Below, piece by piece: positions 33,176-51,761 of a stretch of 64,000 bases of DNA. Source of the DNA: Ewingella sp. CoE-038-23 (GTDB taxonomy: Bacteria > Pseudomonadota > Gammaproteobacteria > Enterobacterales > Enterobacteriaceae). The translations under genes were made by a program, and so were the position numbers. Below the pieces are notes generated by a model. That model saw only the letters and a program-made list of their open reading frames with translations. It was not told the DNA's origin and ran no database searches. Numbering within the stretch: the first letter of the stretch is position 1; every line of letters starts with the position of its first letter. The stretch is from NCBI RefSeq assembly GCF_040419245.1, contig NZ_JAZHOH010000001.1, positions 186,001-250,000 of the forward strand. The letters are read 5' to 3'.

Positions 33176-35565
<2,390 letters not shown>

Positions 35566-35623: not shown

Positions 35624-36490
35624 ATGAATCTTATTGACCATACGGCATGCCGTCCATTCACCGAAGCTGGGCATTTATCACAAATAGCGGCCTATTATGA
35701 AGAGGGTCGAAATGTGATGTGGATGATGCTAAAAGCCTTCCCGCGCCCATGTTTTAATCAGCCTTTAATTGAAGACATTATGAAACTGACCTATGCGGCG
35801 AAAGCCTCGGGTCTGCGTTTTGATTTTTGGGTAACCGGATCGCTGGTGCCTAATATGTATAATGTAGGAGGAGATTTAAGCTTTTTTGTTGAGTCCATTC
35901 TCAATAATAAGCGTGAGGCACTGCGCGCCTATGCGCGAGCCTGCATTGACTGCGTACACGCCGCTGCGCGCGGCTTTGACGTAGGCGCCATCAGCCTGTC
36001 GATGATTGAGGGATCGGCGCTGGGTGGCGGTTTTGAGGCCGCGCTGGCGCACCACTATGTCTTAGCGCAAAACACCGCCCGGATGGGATTCCCAGAAATT
36101 GCCTTTAATCTGTTCCCCGGCATGGGCGGTTATTCGCTGGTTTCACGCAAAGCGGGAATGCGTCTGGCGGAGGAGCTGATCTCAACCGGCGAGTCGCACT
36201 CTGCGGAATGGTTTGAAAGCCGGGGGCTGGTGGATGTGGTGTTCCAGCCCGGCGAAGGCTTTATCGCAACCCGTACTTTTATCGATACGATGCGACCAAA
36301 GTTAAACGGCATTCGGGCCATGCTGCGGGCGCGCCAGAGAGTGCTAAAGCTTTCGCGCTCCGAGTTGATGGATATCACGGAAGATTGGGTAGATTCAGCG
36401 TTTACGCTGGAGGAGAAAGATGTGGCGTACATGGAGCGTCTGGTGATGTTGCAAAACCGCCATACGGCTTCTCTGCGTAAATCCGGCTAG
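35624..36490 (+). CDS. rpfF: DSF-family signal synthase RpfF
   Basis: 288-residue crotonase-fold enzyme that makes cis-2-unsaturated fatty acid signals (DSF/BDSF) from acyl-ACP, acting as both thioesterase and dehydratase. The two catalytic glutamates are visible: E138 in ALGGGFEAAL and E158 in MGFPEIAFNLFPGMGGYS, spaced 20 apart as E141 and E161 in Xanthomonas RpfF. The length matches the family, and GGAT lies seven bases before the ATG. It converges with rpfR (46-base gap), the same pairing as in Cronobacter and Burkholderia. E. coli K-12 lacks rpfF. Confidence 0.93.
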   Translation: MNLIDHTACRPFTEAGHLSQIAAYYEEGRNVMWMMLKAFPRPCFNQPLIEDIMKLTYAAKASGLRFDFWVTGSLVPNMYNVGGDLSFFVESILNNKREALRAYARACIDCVHAAARGFDVGAISLSMIEGSALGGGFEAALAHHYVLAQNTARMGFPEIAFNLFPGMGGYSLVSRKAGMRLAEELISTGESHSAEWFESRGLVDVVFQPGEGFIATRTFIDTMRPKLNGIRAMLRARQRVLKLSRSELMDITEDWVDSAFTLEEKDVAYMERLVMLQNRHTASLRKSG

Positions 36491-36536
36491 TCTGCTCATG
36501 ATTGTCGTTAGCGCTGCCAGACGCCGTGACTGACGA

Positions 36537-38546
36537 CTAGCGCGTAACGTTGTTCAAACTACCGGGTGAAGCAATTGCTTTCTGCACAAGCCAGTGCTCG
36601 AGCTCATCGGCGGGCATTGGTTTGGCAAACAGATAGCCCTGTTTGCTATCTACGCCAATTTCATCAATCAGCCGCTCTTCTTCATGGGTTTCAACCCCTT
36701 CGGCAACCACGGTCAATTGCAGGGTTCTTGCTACGGCAACGATAGCCCGGACCAGCGCCTGCGACACTGAATTATGATTAATACCGCGCACAAAGCTTTG
36801 ATCCAGCTTGATGCAGTCCAGCGGGATCCGCGCCAGCTGCGACAGGGAAGAGTAGCCGGTGCCGAAATCGTCCAGATGCACTTCCGCGCCCAACTTATGC
36901 AGTTGATTGATCATGGTGACGGCCGCTTTTTCATCTTCCACCAGGCAGCTTTCGGTCAGCTCAAAATCCAGCATGCATTGAGTCATTCCGGCGTTTTGCA
37001 TCGCCTCGGTAAAATCCGACACCAGCGAACTGCTGTTTAATTGGCGGCCTGACAGATTCACCGCCACGCGCAAATTCAGCCCTTTCTTCTGCCACTCGGT
37101 TGCCTGTCGGGTAGCGGTTTCGATAACCCATTTGCCTAGCGGCGCAATCAGTCCGGACTCTTCGGCGTAGGAGATAAAGCTCTGTGGCTGAATCACGCCG
37201 CGCTCAGGCGAGTGCCAGCGCAGCAGGGCTTCGACACTCTTTACTTCGCCATTGTTGGAGATTTTCGGCTGATAATAGAGCTTCAGCTGTTGCTCCTCGA
37301 GGGCTTTTCTCAGATTGGTGTCGAGCCACATGTATTCGGAAACTTTTTTGTTCATCTCCGGTGAGAACACGCAGTGCGCGTTTTTGCCCGCCTCTTTCGC
37401 CACGTACATGGCCGTATCGGCGTTGCGGATCAGGCTTTCTGCATCTGTTCCGTGCTGCGGGCAGACCGCGATGCCGCTTGAACAGCCGGTATAAACTTCG
37501 ATTAACCCGATGCGGAAAGGGGCTTTGAGGCGGCCGAGGATCTGTTGGCTGATGGCTTCCAGCTTTTCGACCGACGCTTGGGTACTAAGAATAATGAATT
37601 CGTCACCGCCCAGTCGCGCCAGGGTTTCGGTGTCTTCTAAACAGCCCTGAATGGCGTGAGCCACCTCTTTGAGCAGACGGTCACCAAACATGTGTCCGTA
37701 GGCGTCATTCACTTTTTTGAAGTTATCTAAGTCGAGATAAATCAGTCCGATAGAGTTGTCACCGCGCAGTTCCAGCGCGCTTTTCAGCTGGTCTTGCAGG
37801 GCGTTGCGGTTGGCAAGGCCGGTGATGAGATCGGTATTGGCTAAGACCCGCAGCCGCTCCTGCGCCATGCGCTCATCGGTGATGTCAGAGCCGGAGCAGA
37901 TGAGGAATTTCTGCTGTTTTCCACTGCCGCTGTGGACAAATTTATTGCGGAATAAGAACAGGCGCTGGCCTTTTACCGTGTTAATCCAGCGTTCTACTTC
38001 ATATGACTGCTCTTTTTGAAAGAAGCCGGTGATGTTCTGGCGAGAGGCGATACCTTCTTCCATCGACATAAACATGTCGTAGGCGCTACGGCCAATCACG
38101 TCCTGCTCGCGCAGGCCGGTGTACTCTTCGCTCAGACGGTTGAAGCGATGCACTTTACCGTCTTGATCGATAATCACGATCACCGAGTTGGCTTCGGACA
38201 CTACCTGTTCGGCGAAGGTCAGCCCCACTTCAAGGTCGTGCGCCACGGACGCGGTATCTTCGTAATCAGAGGCGGTGCCCGCCCAAACGTTGCTGTCTAC
38301 CTTACGGCCAACCAAATAGAGACAAACCGGCACGCCGAACAGCGCGACGTCAATGGTGAAGCAAGAGGTGATGCCCGTCAGTTCGCGAATGCGCGCGGCT
38401 TGCAGGCTGGTGAGGGAAACGGCGACGTTGGTCACGCCCTGTTCCGCTGAGAGTTCTAATGCGTTGCTATCTGAACTTAACCGCCAGTAGGGGCGCGGTG
38501 TACCAAAATGCAGGTATAAAATGGAGTCATCTTGAGCGTCTTTCAT
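36537..38546 (-). CDS. rpfR: DSF receptor / cyclic-di-GMP phosphodiesterase RpfR (PdeR-type)
   Basis: 669-residue cytosolic sensor. The order is: N-terminal FI domain (about 1-95, FGTPRPYWRLSSDSNALEL), which binds RpfF in relatives; PAS domain (about 105-225), which binds BDSF; GGDEF (about 237-395, intact G313-G314-D315-E316-F317); and EAL (about 410-655, E439-A440-L441, DDFGTGYSSL). The EAL domain should hydrolyse c-di-GMP when signal is bound. It is the orthologue type of E. coli PdeR (YciR, Gmr), but here stands next to rpfF, which makes the RpfR role more likely. Confidence 0.93.
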   Translation of the reverse strand: MKDAQDDSILYLHFGTPRPYWRLSSDSNALELSAEQGVTNVAVSLTSLQAARIRELTGITSCFTIDVALFGVPVCLYLVGRKVDSNVWAGTASDYEDTASVAHDLEVGLTFAEQVVSEANSVIVIIDQDGKVHRFNRLSEEYTGLREQDVIGRSAYDMFMSMEEGIASRQNITGFFQKEQSYEVERWINTVKGQRLFLFRNKFVHSGSGKQQKFLICSGSDITDERMAQERLRVLANTDLITGLANRNALQDQLKSALELRGDNSIGLIYLDLDNFKKVNDAYGHMFGDRLLKEVAHAIQGCLEDTETLARLGGDEFIILSTQASVEKLEAISQQILGRLKAPFRIGLIEVYTGCSSGIAVCPQHGTDAESLIRNADTAMYVAKEAGKNAHCVFSPEMNKKVSEYMWLDTNLRKALEEQQLKLYYQPKISNNGEVKSVEALLRWHSPERGVIQPQSFISYAEESGLIAPLGKWVIETATRQATEWQKKGLNLRVAVNLSGRQLNSSSLVSDFTEAMQNAGMTQCMLDFELTESCLVEDEKAAVTMINQLHKLGAEVHLDDFGTGYSSLSQLARIPLDCIKLDQSFVRGINHNSVSQALVRAIVAVARTLQLTVVAEGVETHEEERLIDEIGVDSKQGYLFAKPMPADELEHWLVQKAIASPGSLNNVTR

Positions 38547-38706: not shown

Positions 38707-41004
38707 TTATTTCAGCAGGAAGCTACTTTGCTTCACATCCTGCGAATCCAATCCAATGAATACATTGAATTTGCCCGGTTCAGAGGCCCATTTGAGCTTG
38801 TCATTGAAGAAACGTAAATCTTTTTCATTGATCGCAAATGTAACGACTTTTTCTTCACCCGGCGCCAGATTTATTTTCTCGAAGTTTTTGAGCTCTTTAA
38901 CCGGGCGGCTGATAGAGGCCGTCAGGTCACGCAGATAGAGCTGTACCACGGTCGCGCCGCTGCGTTTGCCGGTGTTTTTCACCGTCACGCTGGCAGTCAG
39001 TGGCTGCGTGGCACTCATGGTGGTCGAAGACAATGAAATATCAGAGACGCTGAACTGGGTGTAGCTCAAACCATAACCAAACGGGAAGAGCGGGCCATTG
39101 GTGATGTCGAAGTAGCGCGAGGTGTATTTATCTTCTCTCTGCGGATTCCGTGGTCGGCCAGTATTCAACTCGCTGTTGTATAACGGGATTTGACCAACAG
39201 AGCGCGGGAAGGTCATTGGCAGTTTGCCCGACGGGTTGTAGTCGCCGAACAGCACGTCTGCAATGGCGTGTCCGCCTTCTGTGCCGCTGAACCAGGTTTC
39301 TAGCATGGCATCGGCAATGTCATTTTCCCACGTCAGGGTCAGTGGACGGCCATTCATCAGCACGATCACCAGCGGCTTGCCGGTGGCTTTCAGCGCTTTA
39401 AGCAGGTCGCGCTGGCTTTGCGGAACGTTCAACTCAGTGCGGCTGGACGCTTCGTGCGCCATGCCCTGAGCTTCCCCCACTACCGCAACCACGACGTCGG
39501 CTTTCTCGGCGGTTTTCACGGCTTCATCAATCATTTCCTGCGCTGGGCGCGGGTCGTTAACCACCTGTTTCTCATAGGAGTTCAGGAAGTTGACGATGTC
39601 TTGATCGTTGGTGATGTTGGCGCCACGGGCATATAGCAGGGTGGCTTTGTCGCCAATCGCGTCTTTCATACCTTGCAGCACGGTGACGGTCTGGTTGGCT
39701 TTACCGGCAGCGGACCAGCTTCCCATGACATCACGCTGGCTGTCGGCCAGAGTACCAATCAGGGCGATGGTGCCTTTCTTCTGCAACGGCAAGGTTTCGT
39801 TCTGGTTTTTTAGCAATACCAGTGAGGTACGCGCCACTTCACGCGCCTCTTTGCGATGCAAACGGCTTTCGGCGTTGGTATCAACCGGGTCACTCGATGC
39901 CGGGCCAAGGTGGCGGTACGGATCGATGAACAGGCCCATATCCCACTTAGCATTCAGTACGTTACGCACCGCACGGTCAATCTCTTTGACGCTAACAATT
40001 TTGTCGGCCACTAAGCCTTTCAGGTACTTGCCGTACATGTCATCGGCCATGTCCATATCGACACCGGACTTCAGCGCCATGGCGGCGGCCTGACGGTCAT
40101 CTTCGGCCACGCCGTGTTTGACCAAGCCGCCGATAGCGCCGTGATCGCTAACGGTTAAACCTTTGAATTTCCACTGGTCGCGCAGAACTTGCTGCAACAG
40201 CCACGGGTTGGAGGTCGCCGGAATGCCATTCACCGAGTTCAGCGCCACCATCACGCCGCCCGCGCCTGCATCAAGCGCGGCTTTATACGGCGGCATGTAG
40301 TCGTTGAACATGCGCGTCAGGCTCATGTCCACGGTGTTGTACTCGCGGCCGCCTTCTACTGCGCCGTACAGCGCGAAATGCTTCACGTTGGCCATTACGC
40401 TGTCAGGGGCGGACGGATCGTTATTCTGATAGGCGCTGACCATTTCGTGGGCCAGGCGCGATGTTAAGTAGGTGTCTTCGCCAAAGCCTTCAGAGACGCG
40501 GCCCCAGCGCGGATCGCGGGTGATATCGACCATCGGTGAGAAGGTCATGTTCAGGCCATCGGCCGCGGTTTCAATGGCAGAGATACGCGCGCTGGTGGCG
40601 ACGGCTTGCATGTCCCAGCTGGCGGCAAGGCCAAGGCTGATAGGGAAGATGGTGCGCTGGCCGTGGACCACGTCATAGGCGTAGAACAGCGGGATTTTCA
40701 GGCGGCTGTGCTGTACCTGATCCTGAATGCGGCGAATGTCAGGTTTGGTCACGGTATTGAACATACCGCCAACTTTATCGGCGCGAACGTCAGCCATAAT
40801 GGCTTCTTTCGGGTAGTCGGGACCAACGCTGACTAAGTTAAGCTGGCCGATTTTTTCGTCCAGCGTCATTTGGGTCATCAGATGAGAGACGAAGGCATCC
40901 CGCTCTTTTGTCTGATTTTGGGGAATGCTCGACGCTTGCTCAGCAAACGACGAGGTAGAACCTGCTATTAACACCAACGCGCCAATCAGGTGATGCGTAT
41001 TCAT
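38707..41004 (-). CDS. bglX: Periplasmic beta-glucosidase BglX
   Basis: 765-residue GH3 enzyme, the same length as E. coli BglX. A signal peptide (MNTHHLIGALVLIAGSTSSFA) is followed by the N-terminal barrel with nucleophile Asp in LTVSDHGAIGG and KHFALYGAVEGGREYNTVD, the alpha/beta sandwich (GEAQGMAHEASSRTELNVPQSQ), and a C-terminal fibronectin-III-like domain. It releases glucose from beta-glucosides in the periplasm. The ATG at 41004 has AAGGA seven bases upstream and is preferred to 41022. Confidence 0.97.
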   Translation of the reverse strand: MNTHHLIGALVLIAGSTSSFAEQASSIPQNQTKERDAFVSHLMTQMTLDEKIGQLNLVSVGPDYPKEAIMADVRADKVGGMFNTVTKPDIRRIQDQVQHSRLKIPLFYAYDVVHGQRTIFPISLGLAASWDMQAVATSARISAIETAADGLNMTFSPMVDITRDPRWGRVSEGFGEDTYLTSRLAHEMVSAYQNNDPSAPDSVMANVKHFALYGAVEGGREYNTVDMSLTRMFNDYMPPYKAALDAGAGGVMVALNSVNGIPATSNPWLLQQVLRDQWKFKGLTVSDHGAIGGLVKHGVAEDDRQAAAMALKSGVDMDMADDMYGKYLKGLVADKIVSVKEIDRAVRNVLNAKWDMGLFIDPYRHLGPASSDPVDTNAESRLHRKEAREVARTSLVLLKNQNETLPLQKKGTIALIGTLADSQRDVMGSWSAAGKANQTVTVLQGMKDAIGDKATLLYARGANITNDQDIVNFLNSYEKQVVNDPRPAQEMIDEAVKTAEKADVVVAVVGEAQGMAHEASSRTELNVPQSQRDLLKALKATGKPLVIVLMNGRPLTLTWENDIADAMLETWFSGTEGGHAIADVLFGDYNPSGKLPMTFPRSVGQIPLYNSELNTGRPRNPQREDKYTSRYFDITNGPLFPFGYGLSYTQFSVSDISLSSTTMSATQPLTASVTVKNTGKRSGATVVQLYLRDLTASISRPVKELKNFEKINLAPGEEKVVTFAINEKDLRFFNDKLKWASEPGKFNVFIGLDSQDVKQSSFLLK

Positions 41005-41291
41005 CGAATATCCTTCAGACAAAAAACATGCGGCTTAGGTTAATGACAGCCCCTAGCCAGAACGCGAACAAGGTAATGATCATTATAAGAAAACTATAGC
41101 GTGAGAATCTAATACGTCGCCTCAATTATTAGCAATGAATAGTTTTCTGCAAAAACGACTTATTGACTGCGAGCCGTCACAGCTCGCAATTTACGCTGAA
41201 TTAGGAATTGATGTGCAAATACTGATACGAGATAGCGCGCAATTTCCGTTATTTAGGAATATGCGCACAGTAATAAATAGGGCGAGGGGCG

Positions 41292-49438: not shown

Positions 49439-51499
49439 CTACTCTAAATCCGGGTTATTGGCGATTTGCTCCACCGTCATTGGCCTGCCGAGCAAATATC
49501 CCTGCAACGAATCACAGCCTAGCTCGGTGAGGAAATCTTGCTGTTGGGTGGTTTCCACACCTTCGGCAACCACTTTCAGATTCAGCGTCTGGCCGAGGGC
49601 GATGATAGCTTGCACGATGCTGGCATCTTCGCTTCCCGCAATCAGATCATTAATAAAAGCGCCGTCGATTTTCAGTTCGCTGGCCGGTAAGCGTTTCAGG
49701 TAGAGCAGGCTGGAGTAGCCTGTACCAAAGTCATCAATCGAGGCTTTGACGCCAAAACGCGTGAGCTGCTCGAGGATCTCGACGCTGGCGTCGGGGTTGC
49801 GCATCGCGGTGGTTTCAGTCACTTCCAGCGTCAGCATCTCTGGCGGGATCTGATGCTTCTGCACAGTAGCAATCACCTTTTCCACCAGATTCGGCTGCTC
49901 AAATTGCAGGGCAGAGAGGTTTACCGCCACGGTCCAGGTGCGATGTCCCGCCAAGTGCCACTGGCGCAGCTGGCGACAGGCTTCGTTAATCACCCATTCG
50001 CCGATTGAGATGATCAGGCCGGTTTTCTCCGCCATCGGCAGGAAGACGTCCGGGCTGAGCATCACGCCGTGGCGCTCCCAGCGCAGCAGCGCCTCAAAGC
50101 CGGTCACCGGGCCGTGTGGCGCGACAAATTTTGGCTGATAGTGCAGGCGCAGCTCGTTGTGTTCCACCGCCATGCGCAAATCGTTGAGCATTTGCAGCTG
50201 GTCTTGCGCATTGGCATTCATCGACGGCTGGAAAAAGTTGTAGCCGTTGCGCCCGGCATTTTTGGTGTGGTACATCGCCGCGTCGGCGTTGAGCATCAGC
50301 TCGCGCTCGTTTTCGCCATCGCCCGGATAAACCGCAATACCAATACTCACTGACACCAGCAGCTCGTAGCGCGAAACCTGGAAAGGTTTAGCAATCAGAT
50401 GCCCGAGCTTGTCGGCCAGCGTCGCGGCGTCGTTGGGATCGCCGATTTCCATCAGCAGCACGAATTCATCGCCACCCAAGCGCGCCAAGGTATCCGAGGC
50501 GCGCAGGTGGGCCTGTAGCCGCTCGGTGACGGCAATCAGCAGCAAATCCCCCACGTGGTGCCCAAAAGCGTCGTTCACCGCCTTAAAGCCGTCGAGGTCG
50601 AAAAACAGCAGGGCGAAGGAGGATTGAGTACGCTCCGCTTTCTGGAAAGCCTGGCTTAGACGGTCTTCCAACAGGAGGCGGTTCGGCAAGCGCGTTAGAT
50701 TATCGTGCAAGGCGAGCTGGGTTAGCTCGCGGTTGGCCTGCGTCAAAGAAGAAGCCAGAATCGAGGTGCGCGCCTGCAAGCGGGCATCCAGCACGGAAAT
50801 AATCAGGGTGATGGCGAGCACGGCCAAGGTGACGACAATCACCAACAGCGCCAGCCAGTTATTATTCACCCCGGAAACTGCCGCCATGCTGTGGCTATCG
50901 TGAGGGAAATTGGCGGCGGCCATGCCGATATAGTGCATGCCGACAATCGCGGTGCCCATGACAATCGCCGCGCCGACGCGCAGCATTTTGACATTCGGCG
51001 AGTGCTGGCGCAGGTGAAACGCCATCCACAGCGCGGCACCGGAAGCCACCACGGCGACCACCACTGACAGCGCCACCCAGCGAAGATCGTAATCTATGCC
51101 GGGCATCATGCGCATTGCCGCCATGCCGGTGTAGTGCATCGCCACAATGCCGCCGCCCATCAGCAGGGAGCCAAGCAGCAGGCTCTGGGTCGGCAGCCGG
51201 TCATGGCACACCAGCCAGAGGGCGAACGCGGAAGAAACGATGGCGATCAGCATCGAAAATAGGGTGATAAGCGGGTCATAGCCCATCGACACTGGCAAAC
51301 TAAAGGCCAACATGCCGATAAAATGCATCGACCAGATACCAATCCCCATAGACAGCGCGCCGCCCGCTAACCACAGTTTCGACGCTCTTCCTTGTGTCGT
51401 TGCCACTCGTCCAGCCATGTCGAGCGCGGTGTAAGACGCGAGCATCGCAACGATGAAGGAGAACAGAATCAGGACATCGTTGTAATTACTGGAAAGCAT
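49439..51499 (-). CDS. MHYT-GGDEF-EAL membrane signalling protein
   Basis: 686-residue protein. The N terminus holds a seven-helix MHYT sensor (residues about 1-235) with its three motifs MHFIG, MHYTG and MHYIG; this domain is thought to bind copper and sense O2, CO or NO. GGDEF (RLGGDEFVLL) and EAL (TGFEALLRWERHG; IDDFGTGYSSLLYLKR) follow; both motifs are intact, so it may be a bifunctional cyclase/phosphodiesterase or one domain may regulate the other. The ATG at 51499 has GGAG five bases upstream. It converges on malQ. E. coli has no MHYT relative. Confidence 0.9.
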   Translation of the reverse strand: MLSSNYNDVLILFSFIVAMLASYTALDMAGRVATTQGRASKLWLAGGALSMGIGIWSMHFIGMLAFSLPVSMGYDPLITLFSMLIAIVSSAFALWLVCHDRLPTQSLLLGSLLMGGGIVAMHYTGMAAMRMMPGIDYDLRWVALSVVVAVVASGAALWMAFHLRQHSPNVKMLRVGAAIVMGTAIVGMHYIGMAAANFPHDSHSMAAVSGVNNNWLALLVIVVTLAVLAITLIISVLDARLQARTSILASSLTQANRELTQLALHDNLTRLPNRLLLEDRLSQAFQKAERTQSSFALLFFDLDGFKAVNDAFGHHVGDLLLIAVTERLQAHLRASDTLARLGGDEFVLLMEIGDPNDAATLADKLGHLIAKPFQVSRYELLVSVSIGIAVYPGDGENERELMLNADAAMYHTKNAGRNGYNFFQPSMNANAQDQLQMLNDLRMAVEHNELRLHYQPKFVAPHGPVTGFEALLRWERHGVMLSPDVFLPMAEKTGLIISIGEWVINEACRQLRQWHLAGHRTWTVAVNLSALQFEQPNLVEKVIATVQKHQIPPEMLTLEVTETTAMRNPDASVEILEQLTRFGVKASIDDFGTGYSSLLYLKRLPASELKIDGAFINDLIAGSEDASIVQAIIALGQTLNLKVVAEGVETTQQQDFLTELGCDSLQGYLLGRPMTVEQIANNPDLE

Positions 51500-51761
51500 G
51501 CAAACTCCACACAATAGGATATCTATATTAGGTGCTAATTTTGGCGCGGGATAATCGCATTAAATAATAATAAAGGCTATTGAATTAGCGCCTTTCTATT
51601 AAATTTACTTAAGCTTATTGCTCAATCCTTATAAATTCAGTTGCAAAACTCGTGAGAAGTAAACGTAATAGGAACAAGGTCTTTGCCTTTATAAAATACG
51701 CCAGCGAGCAGATGGTCTATAGTTAACTATTAATTTGGCTAATCAGTTTGGAGTTATAAAC

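What the first reader, a model, noticed from the sequence alone, without database searches (positions are those of the whole stretch)
35624..38546. Complete DSF quorum-sensing module RpfF-RpfR in an enteric genome
rpfF (both catalytic glutamates present, E138 and E158) faces rpfR, whose FI, PAS, GGDEF and EAL parts are all intact. In E. coli the PdeR orthologue is without rpfF. Known RpfF-RpfR pairs (Cronobacter, Burkholderia) make BDSF and lower c-di-GMP through the EAL domain, with the FI domain restraining RpfF. So this strain probably makes and senses a fatty-acid signal.
Basis: partly seen in the sequence, partly recalled or inferred. Interest (0 to 1): 0.7.

Follow-up and report, generated by a model that had tools for sequence, protein, structure and literature searches.

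The report
Fatty-acid signal synthase and receptor pair
This bacterium carries an intact, well-known pair of genes for making and sensing a fatty-acid signal; the pair is common in its relatives, so it is ordinary, although comparing it with E. coli suggests how E. coli-type bacteria lost the signal-making half.

Summary
Confirmed, and ordinary. rpfF (35624-36490, +, 288 aa) and rpfR (36537-38546, -, 669 aa) are intact, convergent and 46 bp apart. E138/E158 match the Xanthomonas catalytic glutamates; FI and PAS match the solved RpfR domains; all five BDSF-contact residues and the GGDEF and EAL motifs are present. The kind is known: pairs are characterised in Burkholderia and Cronobacter, and a 2026 review lists RpfF in Rahnella, Serratia, Yersinia and Pantoea. 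In a draw of 295 family genomes, 70 have RpfF, all 70 also have RpfR, always convergent; 30 have RpfR alone.

Extra, comparative: the 30 lone RpfR genes sit at the E. coli pdeR site, where 49 relatives keep rpfF. Two hold rpfF remnants above shuffled controls and a third is marginal. On lone branches FI evolves about twice as fast relative to GGDEF-EAL, and 16 of 29 scored lone receptors have changed a BDSF contact, against 0 of 69 paired. So PdeR-type receptors look widowed by in-place loss of rpfF.

Caution: the signal need not be BDSF; Cronobacter RpfF in E. coli made cis-2-hexadecenoic acid. No chemistry or physiology was testable.

The parts
35624..36490 (+). rpfF, cis-2-unsaturated fatty acid (DSF-family) synthase, crotonase fold, 288 aa
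   Evidence: 454 bits to the solved RpfF chain 6dgn; NCBIfam PRK08788 405.5 bits over cut-off 177; Pfam ECH_1
36035..36037 (+). catalytic Glu138 codon
   Evidence: pairs with the first conserved Glu of Xanthomonas RpfF; E in 81 of 81 RpfF
36095..36097 (+). catalytic Glu158 codon
   Evidence: pairs with the second conserved Glu of Xanthomonas RpfF; E in 81 of 81 RpfF
36491..36536 (.). 46-bp convergent intergenic gap
   Evidence: none of the 5 terminator-like sites lies inside it
36537..38546 (-). rpfR, FI-PAS-GGDEF-EAL receptor and c-di-GMP phosphodiesterase, 669 aa
   Evidence: NCBIfam PRK10060 (cyclic di-GMP phosphodiesterase) 1103.8 bits over cut-off 782
38262..38546 (-). FI (RpfF interaction) domain, residues 1-95
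   Evidence: residues 1-93 match RpfR FI structure 6dga, E 7e-22
37875..38210 (-). PAS ligand domain, residues 113-224, with S168, N171, Y182, R186, N201
   Evidence: residues 114-223 match RpfR chain 6dgg, E 3e-48; contact residues present, equivalence from PMC6361424
37380..37841 (-). GGDEF domain, residues 236-389, motif GGDEF at residue 313
   Evidence: Pfam PF00990 156.7 bits; motif
36618..37316 (-). EAL domain, residues 411-643, motif EAL at residue 439, DDFGTGYSS at 559
   Evidence: Pfam PF00563 237.9 bits; motifs

Best explanation
A conventional RpfF-RpfR signalling pair. RpfF dehydrates a 3-hydroxyacyl-ACP and cleaves the cis-2-enoyl thioester, releasing a DSF-family fatty acid. RpfR binds that acid in its PAS pocket, its EAL domain then hydrolyses c-di-GMP, and its FI domain caps RpfF and limits synthesis. 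Shown here: intact genes, catalytic and ligand residues, domain order, convergent linkage, and co-retention across the family. Inferred from Burkholderia and Cronobacter work: the chemistry, the sensing, the fall in c-di-GMP and the FI restraint. The chain length of the signal is left open (C12 or longer).
For: Homology to solved RpfF, FI and PAS. Catalytic Glu and tunnel Phe44/Phe88 in 81 of 81 RpfF. Each of the five BDSF-contact residues present in 70 of 70 paired RpfR, this one included. RpfF not seen without RpfR: 70 of 70 genomes of the draw. 70 of 70 pairs convergent, as in the characterised pair (PMC6361424, passages). rpfF or rpfR deletion in C. turicensis raised c-di-GMP 3.4- and 3.9-fold (PMC4698668, passages), and C. 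sakazakii spent medium acted on a reporter strain in an rpfF-dependent way (PMC12421807, passages). Lone receptors have a faster FI and changed PAS contacts, so pocket and FI appear constrained where rpfF is present.
Against: No product, binding or c-di-GMP data for this strain. Wild-type C. turicensis did not induce the biosensor; only the strain with plasmid-borne rpfF did (PMC4698668), so real output may be low. 13 of 30 lone receptors keep all five contact residues, so an intact pocket does not prove signalling. The strict NCBIfam RpfF model (NF053515) is not met: 187.5 bits against a cut-off of 550.
Confidence: 0.85

Rival explanations
1. A variant inside the best explanation, not exclusive of it: the main signal is not BDSF. 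RpfF releases a longer cis-2 acid such as cis-2-hexadecenoic acid, and RpfR responds to that or to a mixture.
For: C. turicensis rpfF expressed in E. coli gave cis-2-hexadecenoic acid by LC-MS (PMC10171134, passages). The receptor here is close to Cronobacter RpfR in FI and PAS. C. turicensis RpfF itself was not compared with the window's.
Against: The solved RpfR PAS of Cronobacter binds BDSF (C12) (PMC6361424). Product spectra in a foreign host can mislead.
Confidence: 0.4
2. RpfR acts mainly like E. coli PdeR, as a trigger enzyme on the CsgD pathway through protein contacts; the fatty acid only tunes it or is a by-product.
For: CsgD is present (340.7 bits, over its cut-off of 250) and so is a full-length MlrA homologue at 45%. 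In B. cenocepacia RpfR also works by protein contact with BerB (PMC9684580, passages).
Against: DgcM, the E. coli partner of PdeR (YdaM in PMC9684580), has no full-length relative here: only its GGDEF part and a short stretch before it match. Complete PAS contacts in 69 of 69 paired receptors point to a ligand in use.
Confidence: 0.15
3. RpfF is a general acyl-ACP thioesterase kept for lipid housekeeping, and FI only stops waste; there is no cell-cell signal.
For: RpfF cleaves many acyl-ACPs (PMC6361424 discussion).
Against: In the draw RpfF is found only with a receptor that has the intact PAS pocket: 70 of 70.
Confidence: 0.07

Closest known systems
RpfF-RpfR of Cronobacter turicensis
   Same: FI-PAS-GGDEF-EAL receptor and all five PAS contact residues; convergent genes (PMC6361424)
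   Different: Here at the fadH/bglX site; Cronobacter's own site and RpfF sequence were not looked at. Function is tested in Cronobacter, not here
RpfF-RpfR (BCAM0581-BCAM0580; the second number recalled) of Burkholderia cenocepacia, BDSF system
   Same: RpfF about 451-454 bits over 285 residues (5fus, 6dgn); PAS residues S168, N171, R186, N201 carry the same numbers (PMC6361424)
   Different: Host of another major branch; partners there (GtrR, BerB) were not sought here
PdeR (YciR, Gmr) of Escherichia coli
   Same: Same four domains; 38% FI, 66% PAS, 61% GGDEF, 60% EAL identity
   Different: No rpfF; Leu at the R186 position; sits at the rnb site; its partner DgcM has no full-length relative in this genome
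RpfF-RpfC-RpfG of Xanthomonas
   Same: Synthase of the same wider family (156 bits to 3m6m)
   Different: Receptor there is a histidine kinase with an HD-GYP regulator (PMC4698668); here the receptor beside rpfF is RpfR; RpfC/RpfG were not sought

Membership tests
RpfF (BDSF-type synthase) | Crotonase fold with the two catalytic glutamates | tested here: met
   E138, E158, aligned to 3m6m and 6dgn
RpfF (BDSF-type synthase) | Score over NCBI's strict equivalog RpfF model NF053515 | tested here: not met
   187.5 bits, cut-off 550. It passes PRK08788 (405.5 over 177). The characterised B. cenocepacia and Cronobacter enzymes were not scored against NF053515 here
[quoted passage not shown]
   needs mass spectrometry
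RpfR | FI, PAS, GGDEF and EAL in this order | tested here: met
RpfR | PAS residues contacting BDSF (S, N, Y, R, N) | tested here: met
   S168, N171, Y182, R186, N201; equivalence from PMC6361424
RpfR | Ligand-stimulated net phosphodiesterase activity | not testable with these tools
   needs enzyme assay
RpfF-RpfR pair | Genes adjacent and convergent | tested here: met
   46 bp apart; 70 of 70 pairs of the draw convergent, 65 of them 8-119 bp apart
RpfF-RpfR pair | FI domain binds and inhibits RpfF | not testable with these tools
   no complex prediction offered; interface residues of 6dgn not readable from the text
E. coli PdeR-DgcM-MlrA module | DgcM orthologue present | tested here: not met
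   10 matches, none over the N-terminal part (earliest from DgcM residue 194); best 40% over residues 243-409
E. coli PdeR-DgcM-MlrA module | MlrA and CsgD present | tested here: met
   MlrA 45% over 1-241; CsgD 340.7 bits
Xanthomonas RpfC/RpfG system | RpfC hybrid kinase and RpfG present | not tested
   not searched

The most novel reading that the evidence does not exclude
The lone PdeR receptors of E. coli-type enterics are widowed RpfR: rpfF was deleted in place several times, after which the FI domain and the fatty-acid pocket drifted and the protein lived on as a c-di-GMP trigger enzyme. Natural pairs of neighbours with and without rpfF would let this be tested directly, and would show whether widowed receptors still eavesdrop on neighbours' signals.
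Probability: 0.65. Interest if true: 0.5.

Novelty: new member of a known kind. Interest (0 to 1): 0.33.

Why it matters
The pair itself adds one more genome to a known signalling family. The comparison gives it some use: it suggests that E. coli PdeR, a biofilm switch, began as the receptor of a fatty-acid signal whose synthase was lost in place. It also points to close relatives with and without the synthase in which that can be tested.

Tried and rejected
Idea dropped: loss of the BDSF-binding arginine (R186, Leu in E. coli PdeR) marks every lone receptor. One search refuted it: of 30 lone receptors with a letter there, 28 keep Arg and 2 have Leu, one of the two being E. coli itself. One search agrees: of the 120 proteins listed nearest to E. 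coli PdeR, 104 have Arg, 12 Leu, 1 Ile and 3 gaps, although whether those genomes lack rpfF was not tested. What remains is the weaker statement on any of five contacts (16 of 29 against 0 of 69; the 29 include E. coli MG1655). Lone receptors are related, so this is not 16 events: the independent-pair test had only 3 supported pairs, 2.6 on average in the expected direction, 0.4 without a difference, none against, p 0.25.

Relaxed FI: the ratio of rates is 1.9 (1.68-2.32, 40 column resamplings), but clade against clade it is only p 0.038 (9 against 13 clades; two further paired clades with almost no reference length were left out), and for PAS p 0.11. GGDEF against EAL also shifts 1.6-fold, so the drift is graded from FI and PAS down to EAL, not confined to the sensor.

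Horizontal transfer between Burkholderiales and enterics was considered: Paraburkholderia RpfF is as near (76%) as Pantoea's (76-77%). The RpfF tree puts three named Burkholderia/Paraburkholderia sequences and two unnamed ones (family code f41) in one clade on the side of the window's group. Without an outgroup neither direction nor nesting can be read, so no claim is made. Promoter-like and terminator-like sites were about as many as in shuffles (2 against a mean of 3.2, and 5 against 4.6).

Rows dropped before counts: L159 and L176 (fragments) from the tree; also L197 and L209 from the rate analysis (97 rows left); L209 counted as unscored for PAS contacts. The remnant scan covered 28 of the 30 lone loci, because L176 and L197 are cut at the contig end. 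Only the best 80 of 320 related loci were kept by the tool and examined.

Full report
WHAT IS THERE. rpfF spans 35624-36490 (+, 288 aa) and rpfR 36537-38546 (-, 669 aa), with 46 bp between them. The flanks are a FadH/OYE-type oxidoreductase (33176-35251, -; no NCBIfam model listed for it passes its cut-off) and bglX (38707-41022, -). RpfF matches the solved chains 6dgn and 5fus over residues 1-285 with 454 and 451 bits, and Xanthomonas RpfF (3m6m) with 156 bits; PMC6361424 names 5FUS as the B. cenocepacia enzyme. In those alignments E138 and E158 pair with the glutamates of the Xanthomonas enzyme known as E141 and E161 (numbers recalled). Both are Glu in 81 of 81 RpfF of the window and 80 related loci, and Phe44 and Phe88 are Phe in 81 of 81; these two Phe change position in the FI complex (PMC6361424, section 14 read).

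RpfR matches NCBI's equivalog PRK10060 (cyclic di-GMP phosphodiesterase) with 1103.8 bits. Residues 1-93 match the FI structure 6dga and residues 114-223 the RpfR chain 6dgg. The PAS contacts to BDSF, given as S169, N172, Y183, R187 and N202 in Cronobacter (PMC6361424, passages and sections 8 and 17), are S168, N171, Y182, R186 and N201 here. Alanine at four of these raised c-di-GMP in B. cenocepacia (section 9). GGDEF (313) and EAL (439) are intact.

HOST. Among relatives named to genus, the nearest by RpfF are Ewingella americana E4 (94%), Hafnia psychrotolerans (93%), Rahnella species (91-93%) and Rouxiella aceris (91%); two unnamed Enterobacterales come first at 95%. The window is therefore placed in the Ewingella-Rahnella-Rouxiella neighbourhood. 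Only one match in the genome covers the FI region; the next best begin at residue 111. The genome has 17 EAL matches in all.

HOW COMMON. In a draw of 295 genomes of the family, RpfR FI-PAS is found in 100 (E <= 1e-35) and RpfF in 70 (E <= 1e-80). All 70 are among the 100. In a draw of 398 genomes of the phylum RpfF is found in 11 (E <= 1e-80). All 70 pairs are convergent; 65 have gaps of 8-119 bp between matches and 5 have larger gaps of 414-6304 bp. So the pair is a usual possession of this family. [quoted passage not shown] PMC4698668 (passages) showed the Cronobacter pair to be functional.

SITES. The pair occupies different chromosomal sites: 12 of 70 at fadH/bglX (the window's clade), 49 at the rnb-yciT/yciH site, and 9 elsewhere. 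Of those 9 I looked at two: L129 has a yhjD-type gene beside rpfF, and L123 has NupC- and LysE-type genes. The 30 lone receptors all lie at the rnb site, which is the site of E. coli pdeR.

LOSS IN PLACE. At the rnb site the distance from the rpfR match to the yciT match is 1260-1782 bp in the 20 rpfF+ loci that show yciT, and 337-659 bp in the 27 lone ones that show it. In 28 of 30 lone loci the 700 bp beyond pdeR were scanned for rpfF. L166 keeps 19 residues of the C-terminus at 95% (38.5 bits), L209 keeps 32 residues of the N-terminus at 47% (33.5 bits), and L172 keeps 18 residues of the C-terminus at 78% (29.6 bits). The best of 20 shuffled controls was 28.5 bits, so L172 is marginal by score, but its piece lies at nearly the same distance from pdeR as that of L166. 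Five further loci had hits of 26.6 bits or less, within the controls, and the other 20 had none. L209 comes from a genome that is 49% complete. On a tree of the GGDEF-EAL part the rpfF label needs 10 changes, 3 of them forced by well-supported branches. G166 (with rpfF) and G188 (without, the L166 locus) are of one genus.

DRIFT OF WIDOWED RECEPTORS. The five PAS contacts are complete in 69 of 69 paired receptors and altered in 16 of 29 scored lone ones, E. coli included (S168A 6, N171Y 5, R186L 2, N171H 1, N171K 1, Y182W 1). FI branch length relative to GGDEF+EAL is 1.72 on lone branches, 0.87 on paired branches at the same site and 0.52 on the Yersiniaceae-type branches that hold the window; PAS is 0.53, 0.23 and 0.19. 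The limits of these figures are given under Tried and rejected.

MECHANISM. Most likely: RpfF makes a cis-2 fatty acid, RpfR-PAS binds it, RpfR-EAL lowers c-di-GMP, and RpfR-FI caps RpfF (model of PMC6361424, section 18 read). A possible output is CsgD: csgD and an mlrA homologue are present. The E. coli partner DgcM has no full-length relative, so the E. coli wiring cannot be copied over unchanged. RpfR of B. cenocepacia also makes c-di-GMP and acts by protein contact with BerB (PMC9684580, passages).

LITERATURE LIMITS. The searches listed no paper in which in-place loss of rpfF beside pdeR was evident from titles, abstract openings or the passages read; one search showed 15 of its 56 papers. 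Two PNAS papers looked up on the subject are not held, so I do not claim that the loss is unreported.

VERDICT. It is a new member of a known kind, with a modest evolutionary by-product.

Noticed in passing
window 49439-51514 (-): A second c-di-GMP protein in the window, with MHYT, GGDEF and EAL domains.
   Followed up: no
L166 (G188), L209 (G316), L172 (G542), next to pdeR: Short remnants of rpfF beside lone receptors, the third marginal, consistent with deletion in place.
   Followed up: yes
L210 (G538:C7:1001864-1010730): A second RpfF gene (68% to the window's, 292-aa open frame) about 280 kb from the rpfF-rpfR pair of the same genome.
   Followed up: no
L148, L149, L158, L134, L161: The gap between rpfF and rpfR is enlarged to 0.4-6.3 kb, so something seems to have been inserted between the partners.
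   Followed up: no
9 genomes of family code f12, genus code g26: RpfF-like proteins at 34-38% identity, a distant branch outside this family; receptor unknown.
   Followed up: no
P0001-P0120: Tyr182 of the PAS pocket is Trp in 53 of the 120 proteins listed nearest to E. coli PdeR, E. fergusonii (P0031) among them.
   Followed up: partly
G000:C1:4465130-4465570 (L094): EAL-domain match with one in-frame TGA and a short open frame, perhaps a broken gene.
   Followed up: no
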